A stretch of 54,250 nt of DNA from a virus: IMG/VR virus record IMGVR_UViG_3300049217_000080, positions 1-54,250 of that record; one strand, written 5' to 3'. Of this stretch, positions 826 to 53,925 are shown one piece after another. The position numbers and the translations under genes were made by a program. Positions within the stretch are counted from its first letter, which is position 1. Each line of letters begins with the position of its first letter. The notes under the pieces were generated by a model. The model saw nothing but the letters and a program-made list of their open reading frames with translations, was not told the DNA's origin and made no database searches.

Positions 826-1878
826 ATGAGTATTAATAAATGGGCTAAACAACTTAAAACAGAATATTCTTTGGATTTGGATTACGATTCATTTGCACCG
901 GAAAATGTAATTAAATCACAGTCGCCTTCTATCAATTATAGCTTTGCGAATAAATCCCATGGATTACCTAAAGATGCCAGTTTAATGCTATATGCTCCAG
1001 CTAAAGCAGGTAAGTCCCTTATTTCTAAAAGCTTCGTTGCTGAAATCCAAAAGAATGATCCAGAAGCCATTACTATGGAATTTAACACCGAATTTCGAGG
1101 CATGCAGTCCTCCAGTAATATTTTCGGTATCGATCTAAATAGACATCTTGTGTATCAGACTAATCGTCCGTCAGAAATATTTGATTTCTTGGTTAAGGAC
1201 GTGGCGGCCCAATTTCAGGACGGAATGCCTCTTAAACTTGTAATCATAGACAGTTTAACCTATGTTGCGGGCGTAAAATCAATGAACGCTGACTCCGTAG
1301 AAGACCATCTTATTGGCGACAAAAGTCTAACCATCACCAAAGGATTAGAACTCATTGTTCCTTGGCTAAAAAGAAATAGGATTCCACTTATTGCTACCGC
1401 ACATATGAGGGCCAATCTAGATCCAGGAAATCCTCGGGCTCCCAAGGAGAAAGCAGCTATAAATCACATGGCACGTCACAGTTTCGAAGTTTTCATGAGT
1501 TTTAGAAAAGCAGGTGCTGCCGATGACAAAGTTAATTTAGCAGGAGAGGCTTACGAAGATAATAATCAAAAAGATATCCGTGGTAACGCAGAGATAACTG
1601 GACACAAAATTATTTCAAAAGTGGAAGAAAATAGTCTTGGTGTTCCGGGTAGAACTGGAATGGTAACCCTTGACTATAAAAAGGGATTGGTCGACATTGA
1701 GTCTGAGGTATTTCTTTTGGGAACCAATACCGGCGTTATCAAAAAAGAAGGAAATCGTAATTACTTCTTTGCTGACAAAAAATGGACCTCTAAAATGGAT
1801 TGCGCTAATGCCATCAAAGACGATCCCAAACTTGCCGCAGCAATCATAGAAGAAGTTCGCAAACTCGATGACAAGTGA
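826..1878 (+). CDS. uvsX: RecA/UvsX-like recombinase
   Basis: This 350-residue RecA-fold ATPase would form filaments on single-stranded DNA and catalyse strand exchange during recombination-dependent replication and repair. The Walker A motif APAKAGKS is at residues 57-64, a Walker B strand LVIIDS at about 138-143, and a polar segment ending in TAH near 190-193 matches the RecA motif next to loop L2. The length fits phage UvsX/RecA proteins (about 350-390). It lies between a hypothetical gene and a sigma-like gene, upstream of helicase and primase, as expected for a replication cluster. The symbol is given by family and has not been tested by alignment. Confidence 0.85.
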   Translation: MSINKWAKQLKTEYSLDLDYDSFAPENVIKSQSPSINYSFANKSHGLPKDASLMLYAPAKAGKSLISKSFVAEIQKNDPEAITMEFNTEFRGMQSSSNIFGIDLNRHLVYQTNRPSEIFDFLVKDVAAQFQDGMPLKLVIIDSLTYVAGVKSMNADSVEDHLIGDKSLTITKGLELIVPWLKRNRIPLIATAHMRANLDPGNPRAPKEKAAINHMARHSFEVFMSFRKAGAADDKVNLAGEAYEDNNQKDIRGNAEITGHKIISKVEENSLGVPGRTGMVTLDYKKGLVDIESEVFLLGTNTGVIKKEGNRNYFFADKKWTSKMDCANAIKDDPKLAAAIIEEVRKLDDK

Positions 1879-2806: not shown

Positions 2807-3362
2807 GGAAGTAATCAGGGCTTGGATTCTTGATTGTGATGGTCGAGTTCCGACCGAGAAGAGGCAGCGTCAGGAGTCTTTTCTTGTCCTTTTAGGTAAC
2901 CTAGCTAAATATGGGTATGACAAAGAGGAACTTACCACTTCCAAAAAAGAGAAAATTGTTCGGTCGTGTGTAAATCCTAACTATCGCCATAAACAAAAAC
3001 TCAAGACCTGGATTGCAATGGTTGTTAGCGATTTAGAGGACGCTATCCTAATTTACTACGGCCAGGTTAAAATTGACCGAGATGTTATCACGCCAGAAAT
3101 GTCCTCCAAGCTAGATGGCTTGAGTAAGAAAGCGGAAGAGACTAGGCTGCTAAGAAGCGCTGATGATTCGGAAAAAGATTCGGAAAGCGGAGACGAAGGT
3201 CTTGACATTGAGGGTGAAGTTAAAAACGCCATCAACAACCCACATAACATTACGGAAGAAAATTTTGAAATAACGGACGAGATGCTAGGAAATTCGGTTG
3301 GCCCAGAAGTCGTATGGGATGAAAATTTCATGGACAAGATCGAGTCTGACGATGAGCGATAA
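2781..3362 (+). CDS. Hypothetical protein with acidic C-terminus, upstream of helicase
   Basis: This 193-residue protein is unrecognised. The first ~95 residues are basic and helical. Residues from about 120 on are strongly acidic (SEKDSESGDEGLDIEGE and a DDER end). The ATG at 2781 has a GAGG site and overlaps the previous gene by 26 bp in another frame. Its own end overlaps the helicase start by 11 bp. A gene immediately before a replicative helicase could encode a loader or ssDNA-binding partner, and an acidic tail is typical of proteins that bind replication partners. That role is inference from position only. Confidence 0.8.
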   Translation: MSQTQATFEEVIRAWILDCDGRVPTEKRQRQESFLVLLGNLAKYGYDKEELTTSKKEKIVRSCVNPNYRHKQKLKTWIAMVVSDLEDAILIYYGQVKIDRDVITPEMSSKLDGLSKKAEETRLLRSADDSEKDSESGDEGLDIEGEVKNAINNPHNITEENFEITDEMLGNSVGPEVVWDENFMDKIESDDER

Positions 3363-4527
3363 CCAGCCTCAATCAGAAGCCTTAAAGAAGTTTCAAGAGG
3401 CTATTGAAAAGACTAAAGCCGGTAAAACGGATACCCAGAGCCTTAGGGAAAAGGTCCAGGAAAAGAAACTTTTCGTAGAGGACTATAAGTACACCAACGA
3501 ACTGGAAAGAATCAAGAAAAGTGAAGCCGATCTAAAAATAGCAGAAAAAGTCAATGTCGGTATTATGACCGACGAAGACATTTTGGAGGTCCAGGAAAGA
3601 AGTCGATTATACCTGGAAAGCGCCAAGAATGGTATGACGTTCTTGCACGAGTCCTTCCGTAAATGGGTTCCTTGTTGGGCCGGTAATATTATCCTGGTGG
3701 GCGCTAGGACGGGTTCGGGTAAGTCTACTTTGGCCGCAAATCTACTGCTGAGCACGATTCAGCAAATCAATCCCCTGACTGGAAAAAATCGGAAAGTCTT
3801 GTGTATTAGCGCCGAGGAGACCTTGTCCCAGGTTTTCAACAGACTCACATGTTTGGTAAAAAACTACGATTACAACGAACAAGATGAGTTTACAGATGAG
3901 CAAAAAGAGAACCTGATCAAATTCATCCCTAGATGGGCCAAAAATGGGGTGTCTGTTATTGGGGATGACGACTCCACTTGTGTGGCTAGTCTAGAAGGTC
4001 TAGAGTCTATTCTCAAGAATCTTCTGGCTACCAAAACGTATTATGACTTAATTGTAATTGACTACATCCAAAAATTTAATACCTCTTCTAAAAATCCGAT
4101 GCAGAACGAGTACAACGTATTGAAGGCGGCTATGAAGATTTTGGACAAGTTTAAGAACGTATATCCTGGAGCTATCGTGGTCTTGTCCCAATTGAAGGCT
4201 CAGAACGAAGAAGAAACCTTGGACTTTCAAACGCGTTTAAGAGGGTCTTCTGATATTATTACGCCTTGTACGGTGGCGCTTGAAATGCAGATCGACAGTA
4301 AATTGAACAAGACCCGTTTTATCGTAAAAAAGAATCGATACAAGGGGTCTACCTTAGGCCACGGAAAAGATATGGGTTTTAAGAAGGGGTGGTTTGTTCC
4401 TTACACCGAAGAGTTCCAGAAGGAAATCGCCGTTAAGAACGAAAAGAAAGATTATTACGAAACTGTTGGAAAGCATGTGGGAGATAAAGAAAAACAAACT
4501 GAAACAAAGGAGAAAGCAGATGTATAG
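3352..4527 (+). CDS. DnaB-family replicative DNA helicase
   Basis: This 391-residue protein is an SF4 hexameric helicase that would unwind DNA ahead of the fork. The Walker A motif GARTGSGKST sits at about residues 119-128, followed by an SAEETLSQVFNRL segment like the DnaB H1a region. A Walker B strand LIVIDYIQ and a sensor strand GAIVVLSQLKA follow. LRGSSDIITPC matches the DnaB motif carrying the arginine finger region. The N-terminal domain is shorter than in bacterial DnaB. The ATG at 3352 is preferred over an upstream TTG at 3298 that would overlap the previous gene heavily. It pairs with the primase at 4942. Confidence 0.88.
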   Translation: MSDNQPQSEALKKFQEAIEKTKAGKTDTQSLREKVQEKKLFVEDYKYTNELERIKKSEADLKIAEKVNVGIMTDEDILEVQERSRLYLESAKNGMTFLHESFRKWVPCWAGNIILVGARTGSGKSTLAANLLLSTIQQINPLTGKNRKVLCISAEETLSQVFNRLTCLVKNYDYNEQDEFTDEQKENLIKFIPRWAKNGVSVIGDDDSTCVASLEGLESILKNLLATKTYYDLIVIDYIQKFNTSSKNPMQNEYNVLKAAMKILDKFKNVYPGAIVVLSQLKAQNEEETLDFQTRLRGSSDIITPCTVALEMQIDSKLNKTRFIVKKNRYKGSTLGHGKDMGFKKGWFVPYTEEFQKEIAVKNEKKDYYETVGKHVGDKEKQTETKEKADV

Positions 4528-4941: not shown

Positions 4942-5805
4942 ATGAAGGATTTTAAAGCCCTCCTAGACCTCGTATTTGACCCCACAGACGACGTTTGTGT
5001 AAGTAATGCTCAATGGGCCTACCATTCGATCCCGCAGTCTCTGGCCTTATCTGGAGAGGTTACACTGGTCTCCAATAATAGCAAGGTATCTGTCCAAAAA
5101 GTTAAAACAAGTGAGTTAACCCTTTTGAGTGTAAATGCCATAAAAGGCTTTAGAAATGACAGTAATGTAACCAAGTACCGGACATTTCTTTGGGAATGCG
5201 ATATCGGCACGCTTCAGCAGCAGTTAAACTACGCCAAAGATCTAGAACTACCCTACAGTGCGGCCATATTTTCTGGCAACAAGTCCGTACATTTCTTAAC
5301 AGTTCTAGATGAGGCTATAGACGCCAAGACTTATAGATATATCTACCGATGGGTACTATCTATCGGAACCCTTTTTGATAAAAACTGCAAGAATCCATCT
5401 AGGGGTGTTAGAATTCCAGGAAACATAAGACCTGACACCGATAGAGAGCAGAAACTTATAAGTCTAGGAAGCAGGGTCAAACTAGAGGACTTTTATGCGT
5501 GGTTATCTAAATATGATCATTTAAGCCCAAAAGAGCAAAAGAGGGAAAATACCTTGACAAATGGAAAAGACTATGGTAAGTTGTCTAGATGGGCGGTAAG
5601 GCAGTTTGAAAAAGGTATCGATTTTTCAAAGGGTCGAAACCAAACTTGGTACGCTCTGGCGTGCGACTTAGTTAAGTCCGGATTTTGTCAAGAAGAAGCG
5701 GTTTGTATCCTGGGACAATATTACCAGGAAGAACACGATTTTCAAGAAAAAGAGTTTTTGTCTTGTATCGACCACGCATATCAATATATGAGAGACAAGG
5801 AATAA
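4942..5805 (+). CDS. Archaeo-eukaryotic-type (AEP/PrimPol-like) DNA primase
   Basis: This 287-residue protein would make primers for replication. The AEP motifs are visible in order: an acidic pair in FLWECD at residues 82-87 (metal binding), SGNKSVHF at 111-118 (the sGxxxhH motif), and FDKNCKNPSRGVRIPG near 145-160. The last ~60 residues (WYALACDLVKSGF and on) look like a PriCT-type primase C-terminal domain. There is no zinc-ribbon or Toprim domain, so it is not a DnaG/gp4-type primase. Its own promoter precedes it. The next gene starts one base after its stop. Confidence 0.75.
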   Translation: MKDFKALLDLVFDPTDDVCVSNAQWAYHSIPQSLALSGEVTLVSNNSKVSVQKVKTSELTLLSVNAIKGFRNDSNVTKYRTFLWECDIGTLQQQLNYAKDLELPYSAAIFSGNKSVHFLTVLDEAIDAKTYRYIYRWVLSIGTLFDKNCKNPSRGVRIPGNIRPDTDREQKLISLGSRVKLEDFYAWLSKYDHLSPKEQKRENTLTNGKDYGKLSRWAVRQFEKGIDFSKGRNQTWYALACDLVKSGFCQEEAVCILGQYYQEEHDFQEKEFLSCIDHAYQYMRDKE

Positions 5806-5806
5806 A

Positions 5807-6325
5807 ATGGGAATTCGTGACGAAGAGATCCAAAGACTGATTAATTACACCAAAGGTCTTGGAGTCAAGGTCACTTTTTCGTCCAAGTCTTCTAAAGACG
5901 CAGCTAGTTGGTATCTGGATAATAGCGAGATAGTGGTTTATAAGCGAAACAACAGTACGAAAATAGAAACAGTCTTAAGCCTAATCCACGAAATCGCCCA
6001 CGCCAAACATTGTATTTGGGAGAAGAATAGAGAGATAGACATAAAAGTAGAAAAAGCCATAGGCCATATGAATAAAGCCGAAGAACTTGAAACCGACACT
6101 AAGAAAAAACAGCGCAAGATTATTTTAGACGACGAGATAGCCGGCACCAAATATTGGGACGAGATTTACCACGAAACTAATATGAAGTTTCCGATTTGGC
6201 GTTTAGAAACCGCAAAAGAATTTGACATCTGGCAATATCAGGTTTTCTATGAAACTGGTAGTTATCCAAAATCTAAGGATAAGAAAAAGAAATATAAGGA
6301 ATTAGTTGATAAACATAGGGAATGA
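5807..6325 (+). CDS. HEXXH-motif putative zinc metallopeptidase-like protein
   Basis: The protein has 172 residues, with HEIAH at 61-65 inside a hydrophobic helix (VLSLIHEIAHAKHC), the zinc-binding and catalytic signature of gluzincin or ImmA/IrrE-like peptidases. A third ligand may be one of the glutamates in EELETD (about 92-97) or DDEIAG. A charged Lys-rich tail follows. No signal peptide is seen, so it is probably cytosolic. ImmA-like proteins often act on regulators or defence proteins, but there is no HTH partner next to it, so the substrate is unknown. It lies between primase and CYTH genes in one operon. Confidence 0.6.
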   Translation: MGIRDEEIQRLINYTKGLGVKVTFSSKSSKDAASWYLDNSEIVVYKRNNSTKIETVLSLIHEIAHAKHCIWEKNREIDIKVEKAIGHMNKAEELETDTKKKQRKIILDDEIAGTKYWDEIYHETNMKFPIWRLETAKEFDIWQYQVFYETGSYPKSKDKKKKYKELVDKHRE

Positions 6326-6326
6326 T

Positions 6327-6980
6327 ATGGATGTAGAAGATAAAACGCTAGAACATATAGAATTTGAAACAAAATATAGAGTTGATGACCACCAACTCAT
6401 TGAGTTCAAACAAATTATGGATTCTTTCCCTGAGAATAAAAAATTTCTTTATGTAGAAGGTCCCGATTATTACTGGACCTATCCTAAATGGTGGTTCGAA
6501 AACAACGCACAATGGGATCCGGATGGAACTTTTACTAGATTTAGAAAGCCTAGTTATGGACTAGACAATGGTAGTAGACAAGTTACCACAAAATACAAAC
6601 CTAAGGAATCGAAAAATAGTATACAAAGAATAGAAAATAACTGGGATATTAAAGACAAAACAGAAGAAAAAGTTATCATTAAAGAACTGGAATGTAGTGG
6701 TAAAAAATTCAGTTTCTCTATCGTTAAGAACTGCCACATCTACAACTTATCTGACGCAACAGTAGTATTTTATACCGTATATGACATTACAGATGGAAAG
6801 CCGAAAAAGGCCGAAAGTTTTGTAGAAGTTGAAGTAGATGAAGACAATATGAAAAATACCACGGAAGAACAGGCTTGGGAAGTAATTATTAAATATGAAA
6901 AACTTCTAGAACCTTTAGGATTGAATGCGAGAAAAAGGCTTTACAAAAGTTTATTTGCAATGTACAAAAGAAATGTTTAA
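6327..6980 (+). CDS. CYTH-domain / triphosphate tunnel metalloenzyme
   Basis: The protein has 217 residues from the ATG at 6327, directly after the preceding stop; an upstream TTG at 6306 is less likely. The CYTH hallmark ExExK is present as EFETK at 12-16. It is followed by the basic strands FTRFRK (R71, R73) and TTKYK (K89, K91), and by an acidic ExE strand FVEVEVDED at 165-173. This is the pattern that lines the triphosphate tunnel in CyaB, thiamine triphosphatases and RNA triphosphatases. Such enzymes hydrolyse or cyclise triphosphates with divalent metal. The phage substrate could be a nucleotide, polyphosphate or RNA 5' end. Confidence 0.75.
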   Translation: MDVEDKTLEHIEFETKYRVDDHQLIEFKQIMDSFPENKKFLYVEGPDYYWTYPKWWFENNAQWDPDGTFTRFRKPSYGLDNGSRQVTTKYKPKESKNSIQRIENNWDIKDKTEEKVIIKELECSGKKFSFSIVKNCHIYNLSDATVVFYTVYDITDGKPKKAESFVEVEVDEDNMKNTTEEQAWEVIIKYEKLLEPLGLNARKRLYKSLFAMYKRNV

Positions 6981-6988
6981 GGAGTTAT

Positions 6989-7555
6989 ATGGTTGTTAGA
7001 AACAAATTTTACAGAATCATAGATAAATATAGAAGAATTTTGACTAAACGCTATACCAAAACTAAAAGTGTAATGACTGTAAATAGTAACCGTTCTAAAA
7101 ATAAAATTCTGGATTTTTATTTGAAAAATAATCGTTGGCCTAATCGTAGAAGTAATAATAAAACCGAGAAACGCTTAGGTTCTAAATTTGAAAATTATGT
7201 CTCAAAAGAAAATTTTTGTTATGATCCAAATTTTCGTCGTATCGTCATGATCACAGGTCGTAAATCGAATAATAAACGTAAGCATGACCGTAGTATACTT
7301 AAGAAGGAAATTTTAGATTTTATTGAAAAACACGGAAGAACACCCAATCGATATGGCAGACCACAAGAATTTGAAGGCGAATCAAAACTTCGTAATAATT
7401 TAGATCGCTATACTCAGGTATATAAAGATATGACATTCTTAGGTGAAGTTTATTCGTTAGATCCATGTCATCGTTCCGGAATTCCATTAAAATTTAGACC
7501 TTTGATCAACAAAGCTTTAGATGTAGACAAACCTTTGTTTAGGATCTGTAAATGA
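6989..7555 (+). CDS. Protein with two helicase-associated-like repeats
   Basis: This is a basic 188-residue protein with a good AAGGAG site. Two similar segments, ILDFYLKNNRWPNRR at about 40-54 and ILDFIEKHGRTPNRYG near 108-123, each followed by a short helix, recall the helicase-associated (HA) repeat (helix, [GN]RxP, then Lx..[LF]). HA repeats are thought to bind nucleic acid. There is no enzymatic motif. Function is unknown, and DNA binding is inferred from charge and repeat type. Confidence 0.55.
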   Translation: MVVRNKFYRIIDKYRRILTKRYTKTKSVMTVNSNRSKNKILDFYLKNNRWPNRRSNNKTEKRLGSKFENYVSKENFCYDPNFRRIVMITGRKSNNKRKHDRSILKKEILDFIEKHGRTPNRYGRPQEFEGESKLRNNLDRYTQVYKDMTFLGEVYSLDPCHRSGIPLKFRPLINKALDVDKPLFRICK

Positions 7556-10492: not shown

Positions 10493-10729
10493 TTACCACT
10501 TACCGAGAGGGCATTTGAAGCTGGAGCCTCTAGCTTTTGCCGCCAAATAACACCCACATTCTCCACATTGATTGGTTTCTTTGATGTGTTTTGGGCATTG
10601 ATTGCAGATTCCTAAGCGCTTATGGAATGTATCGTCTTCAACCAAAAGGTCGTTACCCTCTATAACGTCCTTGGCTAACGCCTTGGCCGATTCAGCGGCA
10701 TACTTAAGTTTCTTAAGAATATCCGACAT
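10493..10729 (-). CDS. Small zinc-binding (cysteine-cluster) protein
   Basis: This 78-residue protein has an N-terminal helix (residues 1-30) and then six cysteines: C42-x2-C45, C55-x2-C58-x-C60 and C73 (ICNQCPKH, CGECGC, KCPLGKW). The pattern fits a compact zinc ribbon of a type often seen in tailed-phage genomes. Its ATG abuts the stop of the thioredoxin-like gene, so the two are coupled. Function is unknown. Confidence 0.65.
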   Translation of the reverse strand: MSDILKKLKYAAESAKALAKDVIEGNDLLVEDDTFHKRLGICNQCPKHIKETNQCGECGCYLAAKARGSSFKCPLGKW

Positions 10730-11215
10730 TCAAGAAACTCTTTGGACCAATATTTGGTTGAGTTCGTCTAGGATAGCCTTAGCTTCTAAGGGATTAAGTC
10801 CATCAAATCCGCCGATGAAGCCAAATTCATTCTCGTAAGTAGCAGCTTTGGTGTGATGGACATAAAACGAAGGAAAAGAGTACTTTTTAACCATTTTAGG
10901 GGTGCCGTCTTCGTTAAATTGCGCTACTGCCTTGGTGAGCTGATTTCCTTTTTCGTCCAATTGAATGGACCCGTCTTCATGGGTTAAGGGCTCATAAACA
11001 ATGGCTTGAATGTCTTCCGCGTATTTCTCGTAATAGGACTTGCCATCGCTAAATTCTAGCGAAAGAAATTGAATACTTGGGTATTCTATTGAGAAGTTCT
11101 CAAACACCGGCTTAGCTGCTTCGCAGTGATGGCAGCCATTAGCGTGAAAGAACAGGACAGAAAACTCTTTTTCTTTTAGTAATGATAACTGATCTTCTTT
11201 AATATTAAGCATCAT
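10730..11215 (-). CDS. Thioredoxin-like protein with CHHC active site
   Basis: This 161-residue protein has a beta strand VLFFHANG followed by C28-H-H-C31, the CxxC redox centre of thioredoxin folds. A cis-proline-type motif SFPSFYV lies near residue 114, after an insertion of about 50 residues. A His-His dipeptide between the cysteines is typical of oxidising DsbA-like or PDI-like sites rather than reducing CGPC thioredoxins. It follows the cysteine-rich fibre gene 11241-13079 by 25 bp in the same direction. It might form or shuffle disulfides in that fibre. The start could also be the second ATG at 11212. Confidence 0.7.
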   Translation of the reverse strand: MMLNIKEDQLSLLKEKEFSVLFFHANGCHHCEAAKPVFENFSIEYPSIQFLSLEFSDGKSYYEKYAEDIQAIVYEPLTHEDGSIQLDEKGNQLTKAVAQFNEDGTPKMVKKYSFPSFYVHHTKAATYENEFGFIGGFDGLNPLEAKAILDELNQILVQRVS

Positions 11216-49213: not shown

Positions 49214-49404
49214 TGCTTCTTACTCTTTTTCTCAGGGAAGGGTTTGATCAGCCTTTTATTTTTGTCGTAAAACTTAAGGACTAAACACCCATCTCTATGT
49301 TTAAGAGTGTAGTATACTATTTTGCTAATGTCAAGGATTTTTTGAAATAGTTTGATGTCTACAAATCCTGATTCTGGTACTGTTACTATCATATTAGGCC
49401 TCAT
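49210..49404 (-). CDS. Hypothetical small basic protein
   Basis: This 64-residue protein is beta/alpha in pattern with a Lys-rich tail. Its ATG overlaps the reductase stop as ATGA, and its own stop overlaps the next start, so it is part of a coupled run. It is not recognised. Confidence 0.6.
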   Translation of the reverse strand: MRPNMIVTVPESGFVDIKLFQKILDISKIVYYTLKHRDGCLVLKFYDKNKRLIKPFPEKKSKKQ

Positions 49405-51296
49405 TTAATGGGGCAAATGCCGCTTGCGCACTCCATGCTATCCAATTGATCATCATTAACGCTACCACTAGTGATTGGCTTAACCCTTGCACTATATTCT
49501 TCAAATTGTTCTTTTGTAATCTCCTCATAAGGAGCCTGAGCAAAGCCATGGTCCGAATGAAGTAGAAAACTCATTGTTTTAACGCCCTTATTGTAATTGG
49601 ATTCAAGCCATTTTTTAATTTCTGGCAACTCTTCTGACCTATAATATACTGTGCATGAAACAGAATTGTCCGACCACTCTGATTGTAATCTTTTAACGTA
49701 TTCCATTTGCTGGACAGCACTTAGGTCCTTAGCTACAACGGTTCCTTCAGGAACTGAGACTGGAAAGGATGCAATAATGGTATTTTTATCATCCGTTCCG
49801 TCAAAATTCTTTTGATACTCTATGTCATATCCATTTTTGCGGCACGTCTCTACCAATGGATTATTAGAAGCTATCCTAATTCTTCTTATATAGTATCTGG
49901 AATAAGCTGGATGAACTCCAGGAGTAACATTTGGTAAAAGGGATAGTGTTCCAGAAGGCTTACATGTAGTTAGCTTGATTGATTCAGGCCATCCGTGTTC
50001 TTTAGAATACTCTTTGTCAAAACGTCTCAACTCAGCGTAAGCATCGTTGAGCCAGGATTTTTGCTCTTCTGTTGCTTGAAGATAACCCGTAACTCCAATA
50101 CCCATTCTCATATGCTTATGAACCACCTCTTCAGTTTCTTCAGCGTGACACGGAAGGGCCAGAGAATGTTTGTTGATCCTGTAAAGATATTTTTGAACCT
50201 CAAAGAACTCTTCCTTAGATGTAATGTTGGGCAGAAAAATTTCTGCAAGACAGCAAGTCTCGTAAGCAGCTAGCGACTGCTCAGCGCAAGGATTGAATAC
50301 TATTACATTTTTATCAGGATATTGTGTTTCTCCCAATCTTCCAATATCTTGGGACAGCTTGATATTGATCAAACCGTAAGCTTCTCCCTTACCATTATAG
50401 CCGTTCCAAAATTGTTCCGGCAATAACTTAATATCATTGCAAGCTACCGAATTATTGGACATAGCTCTCCAATTAGGAATACTTCCTTCACTCCAATTCT
50501 TAGCATTTAAGAACTGAAGATCGTCCATATCTCCTACAGCTAGCTGGGCGCTACGACGGACATTCCCGGATACAACTACAAATCCGATAATATTCATAAT
50601 ATCTAGGGCGTCAATAGGTCTAATCTTCTTGCCTGCGCGATTGTTTAATACTCCAGAAATCTGCTCCATACCCCAACAGAGTTCTTCGGCTCCGGCAGCT
50701 AACCCACCAAACCCTTTAATGGGAGCCCCTTTGCCACGAATGCAGGTAGTAGAATAACTAAAACCTTTGCCAGTTTTAAAGTGTGCTTTTAAAACTCTAT
50801 CCAGTAATTTTATCCATCCTTCTCTGGAATCAGGAACAATAAAATCGGCATCGTTTGTGTCTTGTCTAACTATTTTAGCTTTTCTAACCTTGGGCAGTTG
50901 ATAAACATACTCCCTTTGAATATTATAGCCAACGCCAGAACCCAACATCAGTGCATCCATGGTCCAAGTGAAGGACCTAATGGAATCTACCACGGTTCCA
51001 GCACAATTTTGTAGAGACAAAAGACCTAAGCGATCTACCGTTTTTGTTCCGAGCTGCCACCAAAAACGACCGGCAACAGAACCTTTTAAAGACAAAAATA
51101 TCTCTTCCAGCCTTTTTTCTTCGGCTTCTGTAAAACCTATTTTAAGCTGGGTTCTACAAGCCTTGATGACACGTTCTACGGTTTGATTAAACTCTTCTGT
51201 CTCTGAATTCGGATCACTTTCTTTTAGCCTTCTAGAATATGTGCGCTTATAAGTGATATAGCCTATTGGACCCCATGGCGTGACGATCTTACTCAT
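49401..51296 (-). CDS. nrdJ: Adenosylcobalamin-dependent (class II) ribonucleotide reductase
   Basis: The protein has 631 residues from the ATG at 51296 (AGGAAGGG site). It reduces ribonucleotides to deoxyribonucleotides using B12 radical chemistry. Cys98 (LQNCAG) and Cys348 are the expected active-site disulfide pair. N335-P-C337-A-E339 is the radical-site motif. The C-terminal CASGICPIK supplies the redox shuttle cysteines C623 and C628. This tail and the KRTYSRRL start match the monomeric Lactobacillus-type triphosphate reductase, but the chain is about 100 residues shorter. No NrdB or activase gene is needed. Confidence 0.9.
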   Translation of the reverse strand: MSKIVTPWGPIGYITYKRTYSRRLKESDPNSETEEFNQTVERVIKACRTQLKIGFTEAEEKRLEEIFLSLKGSVAGRFWWQLGTKTVDRLGLLSLQNCAGTVVDSIRSFTWTMDALMLGSGVGYNIQREYVYQLPKVRKAKIVRQDTNDADFIVPDSREGWIKLLDRVLKAHFKTGKGFSYSTTCIRGKGAPIKGFGGLAAGAEELCWGMEQISGVLNNRAGKKIRPIDALDIMNIIGFVVVSGNVRRSAQLAVGDMDDLQFLNAKNWSEGSIPNWRAMSNNSVACNDIKLLPEQFWNGYNGKGEAYGLINIKLSQDIGRLGETQYPDKNVIVFNPCAEQSLAAYETCCLAEIFLPNITSKEEFFEVQKYLYRINKHSLALPCHAEETEEVVHKHMRMGIGVTGYLQATEEQKSWLNDAYAELRRFDKEYSKEHGWPESIKLTTCKPSGTLSLLPNVTPGVHPAYSRYYIRRIRIASNNPLVETCRKNGYDIEYQKNFDGTDDKNTIIASFPVSVPEGTVVAKDLSAVQQMEYVKRLQSEWSDNSVSCTVYYRSEELPEIKKWLESNYNKGVKTMSFLLHSDHGFAQAPYEEITKEQFEEYSARVKPITSGSVNDDQLDSMECASGICPIK

Positions 51297-51322
51297 ACTT
51301 TTAACCCTTCCTAAACCTAATC

Positions 51323-51934
51323 TTAATCCCAAAAAGCTTTAGAATGCTTGATCAATATCTCAGCCATTTTGTTAATATCTCTGATTCTATCCCTCTCTCC
51401 GTCCTCGAAACAGGCAAGAAAATCATTTTTTTCTCTATCCTTCAACTCCTGCGCAGCGTTTTCGGGGCAATTCTTACGCCAAATAATCCACTGACCCATA
51501 CCTTTACGGCGACCTTCTTCGTCAAGACAAGGTTCGGTTCTGTGCTCCAGTTTTCCCCACTTCTTATCGTGCTTGCGTAAATATTTACGCTCATGGTTTT
51601 CGCGTCGAAGTCTGTAAACTATTTTAGTCAGCTCCTTAAGAGCGACCATGTCTTCGTCTTCATGAATAGCGTGACCATTTTCTAAGCCTTTATAAAGGCG
51701 TTTAAGCTTAAAAAGAAAAACGTCATAAACGTACGCCATGTCCCAATCGTGGTTGTCCCAACCGAACTTAGCGTAATCATAGGACCTGAGAATGCGCTCT
51801 TTGTAGATTTGGAAAAATCTCTCTACAGGCCAAAACACGTATTTCTCTATAAAATAGGCAATCTTTTTAAAGAATCCCTTTTCATCATCTCCGTACCAAT
51901 CAGGAATTATATTTTTTAGGGCTTTAGACTTCAC
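51323..51934 (-). CDS. Conserved-type hypothetical phage protein
   Basis: The protein has 203 residues. A GTG at 51934 is preferred, because it overlaps the upstream stop as GTGA and has GGAAGG seven bases before it; a TTG at 51967 is less likely. It is rich in aromatic and charged residues (FFKKIAYFIEKYVFWPVERFF; YDYAKFGWDNHDWDMAYVYD). I recall similar sequences from other tailed phages but know no function. It has no membrane span or catalytic motif. Confidence 0.6.
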   Translation of the reverse strand: MKSKALKNIIPDWYGDDEKGFFKKIAYFIEKYVFWPVERFFQIYKERILRSYDYAKFGWDNHDWDMAYVYDVFLFKLKRLYKGLENGHAIHEDEDMVALKELTKIVYRLRRENHERKYLRKHDKKWGKLEHRTEPCLDEEGRRKGMGQWIIWRKNCPENAAQELKDREKNDFLACFEDGERDRIRDINKMAEILIKHSKAFWD

Positions 51935-53322: not shown

Positions 53323-53925
53323 CTATTCTTTCTCCAAAATCTTTCTTTCTGTCTCAAGATCCCTGTTCAAGGCGGCGGCTTCTGAAAACTTATCTCCGTA
53401 GCGAGCCCTGAGTTTTGCAATATTCTTCTCGCGCGTGGCTTCAACCGTGGTTCCAGAAACAAAACAGATTGCGGAAGCAGCCAAGCACATTTTTTTAAGT
53501 GAAAGTTTCAGTTTATCTTTGTCTAGTTCTCTGCCATAAAAAATATGCTTCTTTAGCAGATCGTTGAAGTCTCCTGACACGCAGACTGCGGCTAACAATG
53601 TGTATTTTAAGGACGGCAGACAGTGTTTTTCCAGTCCCGACAAATCACGTTCATGCTTAGAGACTTCGTCATGATCTAAACCTAAAGTGTTTACTGCTAC
53701 GGCGGCGTACCAAAGAAGATCTCCCGATTCTTCAGAAATATTAACCCAGTCAATTTCGCCGCTTGGAGGAAGAGCATAAGCATCAACTAATTCTGTAAGT
53801 TCGCTGCTGAAACCAAGTCCGGCATGGAGTAGGCGAATCGCGTCTTCCGTAAGCCTATCTTTAACTGCGGATAGATCTCTGGATTCCGTTACTAAGACGT
53901 TCTGTTCGTACTCTTTAGGTTTCAT
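53323..53925 (-). CDS. MazG-like nucleotide pyrophosphohydrolase
   Basis: The protein has 200 residues. The all-alpha NTP-pyrophosphatase signature is present: E42-x2-E45 in SSELTELVDA, then E66-x2-D69 in EESGDLLWYAA, the Mg-binding ExxE...ExxD pairs. The ending TREKNIAKLRARYGDKFS is also typical. A spacer helical region of ~60 residues (about 100-155) lies between and may be a dimer or regulatory part. In phages, MazG-like enzymes are thought to adjust nucleotide or ppGpp-type pools. It is co-transcribed with 53929-54099. Confidence 0.75.
   Translation of the reverse strand: MKPKEYEQNVLVTESRDLSAVKDRLTEDAIRLLHAGLGFSSELTELVDAYALPPSGEIDWVNISEESGDLLWYAAVAVNTLGLDHDEVSKHERDLSGLEKHCLPSLKYTLLAAVCVSGDFNDLLKKHIFYGRELDKDKLKLSLKKMCLAASAICFVSGTTVEATREKNIAKLRARYGDKFSEAAALNRDLETERKILEKE

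What the first reader, a model, noticed from the sequence alone, without database searches (positions are those of the whole stretch)
6327..6980. CYTH triphosphate-tunnel protein in a phage replication operon
ExExK, paired Arg/Lys strands and the late ExE strand are all present. CYTH enzymes act on triphosphates, including cyclic-nucleotide formation in class IV cyclases. Placement next to primase raises the options of nucleotide pool control, RNA 5'-end processing, or removal of a nucleotide-based defence signal.
Basis: partly seen in the sequence, partly recalled or inferred. Interest (0 to 1): 0.62.

Follow-up and report, generated by a model that had tools for sequence, protein, structure and literature searches.

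The report
Phage CYTH triphosphatase beside replication genes
A gene in an uncultivated phage's replication operon encodes a real but highly divergent member of a known family of tunnel-shaped enzymes that cut triphosphates, most likely used on nucleotides; the enzyme family was already known in phages, this branch of it appears not to be catalogued.

Summary
ORF 6327-6980 (217 aa) is a CYTH / triphosphate tunnel metalloenzyme (TTM). Its own sequence hits no CYTH model, but 30 relatives link it: an alignment of 31 sequences matches archaeal CYTH chains (1yem, E 1e-5). The AlphaFold2 model (pLDDT 89.9) has eight strands and aligns to PH1012 (Z 18.0) and the proven triphosphatase SaTTM (Z 16.5). 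All eleven expected two-metal tunnel residues are invariant in 31 of 31 sequences. By published motif rules it should be a triphosphate hydrolase, not a cyclase. Two family-wide peculiarities: Cys replaces the second basic residue of the strand-6 pair (30/31), and Phe (31/31) sits where thiamine triphosphatases stack the organic group. Relatives lie in large uncultivated phages, often beside dNMP kinase, phosphatases, ligase, ClpP or primase; the window also has ribonucleotide reductase and MazG. Best reading: clearance of nucleoside (or other) triphosphates during phage replication; the true substrate is untested. CYTH proteins in phages, and a nucleotide-pool role, were already proposed (Iyer et al. 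2021). Ordinary in kind, a new divergent branch.

The parts
6327..6980 (+). CYTH/TTM protein gene, 217 aa
   Evidence: ORF; AF2 model pLDDT 89.9, eight strands; VIA-align Z 18.0 to 2dc4, 16.5 to 7ns9
6360..6374 (+). ExExK motif, residues 12-16 (strand 1; metal 2 and substrate)
   Evidence: sequence; invariant E, E, K in 31/31
6465..6473 (+). DxY motif, residues 47-49 (places the beta-water in SaTTM/YpCyaB)
   Evidence: D 31/31, Y 28/31 F 3/31; motif role from PMC8233210
6531..6545 (+). FxRxR, residues 69-73 (strand 3; catalytic/gatekeeper Arg; Phe at the ThTPase Trp position)
   Evidence: F, R, R 31/31; motif role from PMC8233210 and PMC4641920
6591..6599 (+). KxK, residues 89-91 (strand 4, triphosphate binding)
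   Evidence: K89 31/31, K91 30/31
6627..6641 (+). RxExN, residues 101-105 (strand 5, acidic patch Glu)
   Evidence: 31/31 each
6726..6734 (+). KxC, residues 134-136 (strand 6): canonical second basic residue replaced by Cys
   Evidence: K 31/31; C 30/31, V 1/31; gap-free profile alignment puts C136 on Arg of 1yem and 2dc4
6819..6833 (+). FxExE, residues 165-169 (strand 8; metal 1 and metal 2 Glu)
   Evidence: E167, E169 31/31, F165 30/31
6936..6950 (+). R204...S208, start of the C-terminal (plug-helix) region
   Evidence: R and S 31/31; helix 209-213 in the model
5807..6325 (+). preceding ORF, 172 aa, weakly Peptidase_M78/metallo-protease-like
   Evidence: phrog_87 E 0.0027; M78 E 0.0093 in its L024 relative
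4942..5805 (+). DNA primase
   Evidence: phrog_2597 E 1.9e-17
3298..4527 (+). DnaB-like replicative helicase
   Evidence: phrog_19 E 1.1e-26; PF03796 E 1.7e-14
826..1878 (+). UvsX/RecA-like recombinase
   Evidence: phrog_97 E 6.4e-23
49401..51332 (-). ribonucleotide reductase (nucleotide metabolism in the same phage)
   Evidence: phrog_367 E 1.7e-130
53323..53925 (-). MazG-like pyrophosphatase
   Evidence: phrog_229 E 1.3e-26

Best explanation
The protein is a metal-dependent triphosphate tunnel metalloenzyme of the CYTH superfamily. A triphosphate enters the eight-stranded tunnel; basic residues R71, R73, K89, K91 and K134 hold it, E167 binds metal 1, and E12, E14 and E169 bind metal 2, which activates water to cut the beta-gamma bond, giving a diphosphate and phosphate (mechanism inferred by homology; residues and fold shown). 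It should be a hydrolase, not a cyclase. The invariant Phe69 next to the two arginines suggests that an organic triphosphate, most likely an NTP or dNTP, is the physiological substrate, and that the phage uses the enzyme to adjust or clean triphosphate pools while it replicates its DNA (inference). Probabilities: fold and family 0.97; hydrolase rather than cyclase 0.85; nucleotide-pool role about 0.5.
For: AF2 model from 31 family sequences, pLDDT 89.9, pTM 0.85, eight strands. Foldseek: best PDB hits SaTTM, E 4e-9 to 1e-8. VIA-align: 2dc4 Z 18.0 (rmsd 2.1, 164 aligned), 1yem Z 17.9, SaTTM 7ns9 Z 16.5, YgiF 5a60 Z 15.0. Family profile hits 1yem E 1e-5 and 2dc4 E 4e-5. PF01928 in 4 of 31 members, best 1.1e-5, and Med18 (which shares the tunnel fold, PMC4641920) in 12. 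Catalytic residues invariant. Motif rules from the SaTTM paper: no HF, RxR kept, ExE kept = TTM or ThTPase. Context: dNMP kinase (PF21448 E 6e-11) directly beside the gene in seven loci, upstream in five and downstream in two; RNR and MazG in the window; MazG in 10 of 19 records searched.
Against: No activity is shown. Substrate class cannot be read from a fold. The second basic residue of strand 6 is Cys, so activity could be weak or altered. The archaeal relatives have Leu where this family has Phe69, so the aromatic argument is soft. In several relatives dNMP kinase lies tens of kilobases from the gene, so the link is not universal. Gene order in related phages is not independent evidence.
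Confidence: 0.6

Rival explanations
1. It is an RNA 5'-triphosphatase that trims the triphosphate from primers or phage transcripts, preparing ends for kinase/ligase repair or decay.
For: Same fold as Cet1, Pct1 and mimivirus RNA triphosphatases (Z 11-13). Primase nearby in 13 of 30 loci; relatives lie near DNA ligase (4 loci; directly beside it in L009), T4-like polynucleotide kinase/phosphatase (L016, L030, L031), a calcineurin-like phosphatase (3 loci) and a HAD-like protein (5 loci).
Against: Closest folds are archaeal CYTH proteins, not the capping enzymes (Z 18 against 11-13). No nucleotidyltransferase of the capping kind was seen beside it in the window. The ligase in relatives looks like a DNA ligase.
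Confidence: 0.2
2. It is an inorganic triphosphatase (PPPase) like E. coli YgiF or Arabidopsis TTM3, a housekeeping scavenger of tripolyphosphate.
For: YgiF 5a60 Z 15.0 and AtTTM3 Z 13-14; weak profile match to YgiF, E 3.5e-4; all metal residues kept.
Against: No CHAD domain; invariant Phe69 at the organic-group position; a phage has no obvious need for a tripolyphosphatase.
Confidence: 0.2
3. It destroys or alters a nucleotide signal of a host defence system.
For: Phage-borne nucleotide-cutting enzymes are a common counter-defence (general knowledge).
Against: The conserved setting is replication and nucleotide genes; no defence or counter-defence neighbour was identified; defence signals known to me are mostly cyclic or otherwise lack a free triphosphate.
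Confidence: 0.06
4. It is a class IV adenylyl cyclase.
For: CyaB folds align well (3n0z Z 16.1); DxY motif shared.
Against: HFxxxxExExK absent; first Arg of RxR kept; second Glu of ExE kept, which is Ala in all class IV cyclases.
Confidence: 0.03

Closest known systems
Archaeal CYTH proteins PH1012 (2dc4) and Pfu-838710 (1yem)
   Same: Fold over nearly the whole length (Z 18, rmsd 2.0-2.1), about 23% identity, profile E 1e-5, ungapped match through strands 6-7
   Different: They keep Arg where this family has Cys136; Leu where it has Phe69; cellular, not phage
SaTTM, Sulfolobus acidocaldarius triphosphatase (7ns9, PMC8233210)
   Same: Fold (Z 16.5), ExExK, DxY, RxR, FxExE
   Different: Ala54 at the Phe69 position; cellular; about 21% identity
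CYTH proteins of jumbo and T4-like phages (PMC7824862, PMC1524935)
   Same: Superfamily and phage setting; nucleotide-pool role already suggested there
   Different: RB49 and Aeh1 CYTH proteins show no usable sequence similarity to this family; no INPHARED phage matched the members tried
Mammalian thiamine triphosphatase
   Same: Fold (3tvl Z 13.4), aromatic-x-R-x-R, ExE
   Different: Phe rather than Trp/Tyr; lower structural similarity than archaeal CYTH

Membership tests
CYTH / TTM superfamily | eight-stranded tunnel fold | tested here: met
   AF2 pLDDT 89.9 with eight strands; Z 15-18 to TTM structures
CYTH / TTM superfamily | N-terminal ExExK | tested here: met
   31/31
CYTH / TTM superfamily | score above the Pfam CYTH cut-off | tested here: inconclusive
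   window protein no hit; 4 of 31 members match at E <= 1, best 1.1e-5
TTM triphosphatase (two-metal hydrolase) | RxR on strand 3 and both Glu of ExE on strand 8 | tested here: met
   31/31
TTM triphosphatase (two-metal hydrolase) | basic pair on strand 6 (usual, not shown to be indispensable) | tested here: inconclusive
   KxC in 30/31, KxV in 1: one of the two basic residues is kept, the other is lost; the metal and catalytic set is complete
TTM triphosphatase (two-metal hydrolase) | triphosphate hydrolysis in vitro | not testable with these tools
   needs purified protein
Class IV adenylyl cyclase | HFxxxxExExK | tested here: not met
   sequence KTLEHIEFETK; rule
Class IV adenylyl cyclase | second Glu of ExE replaced by Ala | tested here: not met
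   E169 in 31/31; rule
Thiamine triphosphatase | W/YxRxR | tested here: not met
   FxRxR in 31/31; aromatic but not Trp or Tyr
Cet1-like RNA triphosphatase | closest fold among TTM subfamilies | tested here: inconclusive
   listed at Z 11-13 below archaeal CYTH at Z 16-18

The most novel reading that the evidence does not exclude
A phage-only TTM subfamily with a re-tuned tunnel (Cys in place of a phosphate-binding basic residue, invariant Phe at the base-stacking position) that acts on a specific nucleoside triphosphate or on 5'-triphosphate primer ends as a dedicated part of large-phage replication.
Probability: 0.2. Interest if true: 0.5.

Novelty: new member of a known kind. Interest (0 to 1): 0.28.

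Why it matters
CYTH proteins recur in large phages with no tested function that I could find. This family gives 30 further relatives, a confident model, and clear mutants (E167A, E169A, C136R, F69A), so the question of what phage CYTH enzymes cut becomes a short biochemical experiment. It also shows that Pfam and PHROGs miss such divergent members.

Tried and rejected
Single-sequence searches (Pfam, PHROGs, NCBIfam, PDB sequences, INPHARED tblastn) found nothing significant; the weak Ge1, TEF, prion and BdbD hits were taken as chance. AF2 with three close sequences failed (pLDDT 45) and was replaced by one with 31. Profile comparison with five Bacteroidota CYTH proteins and with RB49/Aeh1 phage CYTH gave no usable score, so the links rest on archaeal CYTH sequences and on fold. 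The idea of Iyer et al. that such enzymes purge unmodified nucleotides in phages with modified DNA was checked: a thymidylate-synthase-type enzyme was found in only 1 of 18 records, which gives it no support, though the records may be incomplete and other modification routes were not searched. dN/dS could not be given as a number because dS is saturated. No papers testing a phage CYTH enzyme were found in the open library.

Full report
What is there. The ORF at 6327-6980 (+) codes for 217 residues and starts one base after the stop of the preceding ORF, inside a run of genes on the + strand from 298 to about 8260 that includes a UvsX/RecA-like recombinase, a DnaB-like helicase and a primase. 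The window is a 54,250-base virus record; genes from about 8540 onward are mostly on the - strand and include a baseplate-like protein, a ribonucleotide reductase and a MazG-like pyrophosphatase.

Is it more than chance. The window protein alone matches no CYTH model. Relatives in IMG/VR and one in a Saprospiraceae metagenome bin gave an alignment of 31 sequences, down to 32% identity. Only 25 columns are invariant, and all eleven tunnel residues expected from AtTTM3 and SaTTM are among them (chance about 5e-12). Against the nearest relative dN is 0.16 with dS saturated, as expected of a protein under purifying selection. The 31-sequence profile matches the archaeal CYTH chains 1yem (E 1e-5) and 2dc4 (E 4e-5) in the PDB. 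PF01928 matches 4 members and Med18, a protein of the same fold that appears to have lost catalysis, matches 12.

Fold. AlphaFold2 on the 31-row alignment gave pLDDT 89.9 and pTM 0.85 with strands 14-19, 39-51, 69-73, 84-90, 101-108, 127-140, 144-153 and 163-170, followed by helices. Foldseek's best PDB matches are SaTTM with phosphate ligands. VIA-align gives Z 18.0 to 2dc4, 17.9 to 1yem, 16.5 to SaTTM, 16.1 to CyaB, 15.0 to YgiF, about 13 to thiamine triphosphatase and 11-13 to RNA triphosphatases.

Which activity. Vogt et al. 2021 (PMC8233210) give motif rules. A class IV cyclase needs HFxxxxExExK, a small residue for the first Arg of RxR, and Ala for the second Glu of ExE; here none of the three holds in the window protein, and the last two fail in all 31 sequences. 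The two-metal hydrolase set of Martinez et al. 2015 (PMC4641920) is complete. DxY, which places a substrate water, is present (Y is F in 3 of 31). So hydrolysis of a triphosphate is the expected chemistry; this step is inferred, not shown.

Peculiarities. First, the strand-6 basic pair: the gap-free profile alignment from G125 to V151 puts C136 on an Arg in 1yem and 2dc4, and it is Cys in 30 and Val in 1 of 31. Second, the position two before the first arginine of RxR, Trp in thiamine triphosphatase and Ala in SaTTM, is Phe in 31 of 31; the archaeal relatives have Leu there, so the inference to an organic substrate is soft. Third, Y149 and V151 on strand 7, and R204 and S208 near the plug helix, are invariant; their roles are unknown.

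Context. Gene order was compared across 30 loci, with neighbours named by Pfam. Primase of this type is present in 13; a ClpP-like protease lies within three genes upstream in nine. In a second kind of phage the gene directly follows a deoxynucleotide monophosphate kinase (five loci), and in a third it directly precedes one (two loci, with one more four genes away). In others it lies beside a calcineurin-like phosphatase, a HAD-like protein, MazG or a DNA ligase, or near a T4-like polynucleotide kinase/phosphatase. dNMP kinase occurs in 14 of 32 records, sometimes far from the gene; MazG in 10 of 19; the PNKP phosphatase domain in 6 of 19. The common thread is nucleotide and phosphate-end metabolism, which favours a nucleotide-pool role and leaves RNA-end trimming open.

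Known or new. CYTH triphosphatases are recorded across jumbo phages, with a nucleotide-pool role proposed (PMC7824862), and in RB49, Aeh1 and MA9V-1. The present family was not found in PHROGs or INPHARED at the sensitivity used and is very distant from RB49 and Aeh1 CYTH. It is therefore a new divergent branch of a known kind. A functional test of any phage CYTH enzyme was not found in the open library.

Noticed in passing
6989-7555 (+): 188-aa basic ORF right after the CYTH gene, with two similar repeat-like units (ILDF...NRWPNR and ILDF...GRTPNR); no family match. Possibly a DNA-binding repeat protein.
   Followed up: partly
5807-6325 (+): 172-aa ORF with a HEIAH metal-binding motif, weakly Peptidase_M78/metallo-protease-like; related genes follow the primase in L024 and L025.
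   Followed up: partly
L004, L006, L008, L009, L011, L021, L022, L027, L039: A ClpP-like protease lies within three genes upstream of the CYTH gene in nine relatives, with an AAA+ ATPase downstream in six of these loci; unusual company for replication genes.
   Followed up: partly
L004:10165-11181, also L011, L021, L022, L024, L027, L028, L039: An aminotransferase/alliinase-like gene recurs near the same operon in eight contigs; role unclear.
   Followed up: no
L039 (JALHRR010000011.1): The only relative found among species genomes is on a 129-kb contig binned as Saprospiraceae; its gene order is that of the phage contigs, so it is probably a phage contig in the bin and hints at a Bacteroidota host.
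   Followed up: partly
10730-11215 and 10493-10729 (-): Thioredoxin-like protein followed by a DUF6171-like cysteine-rich small protein among the structural genes.
   Followed up: no
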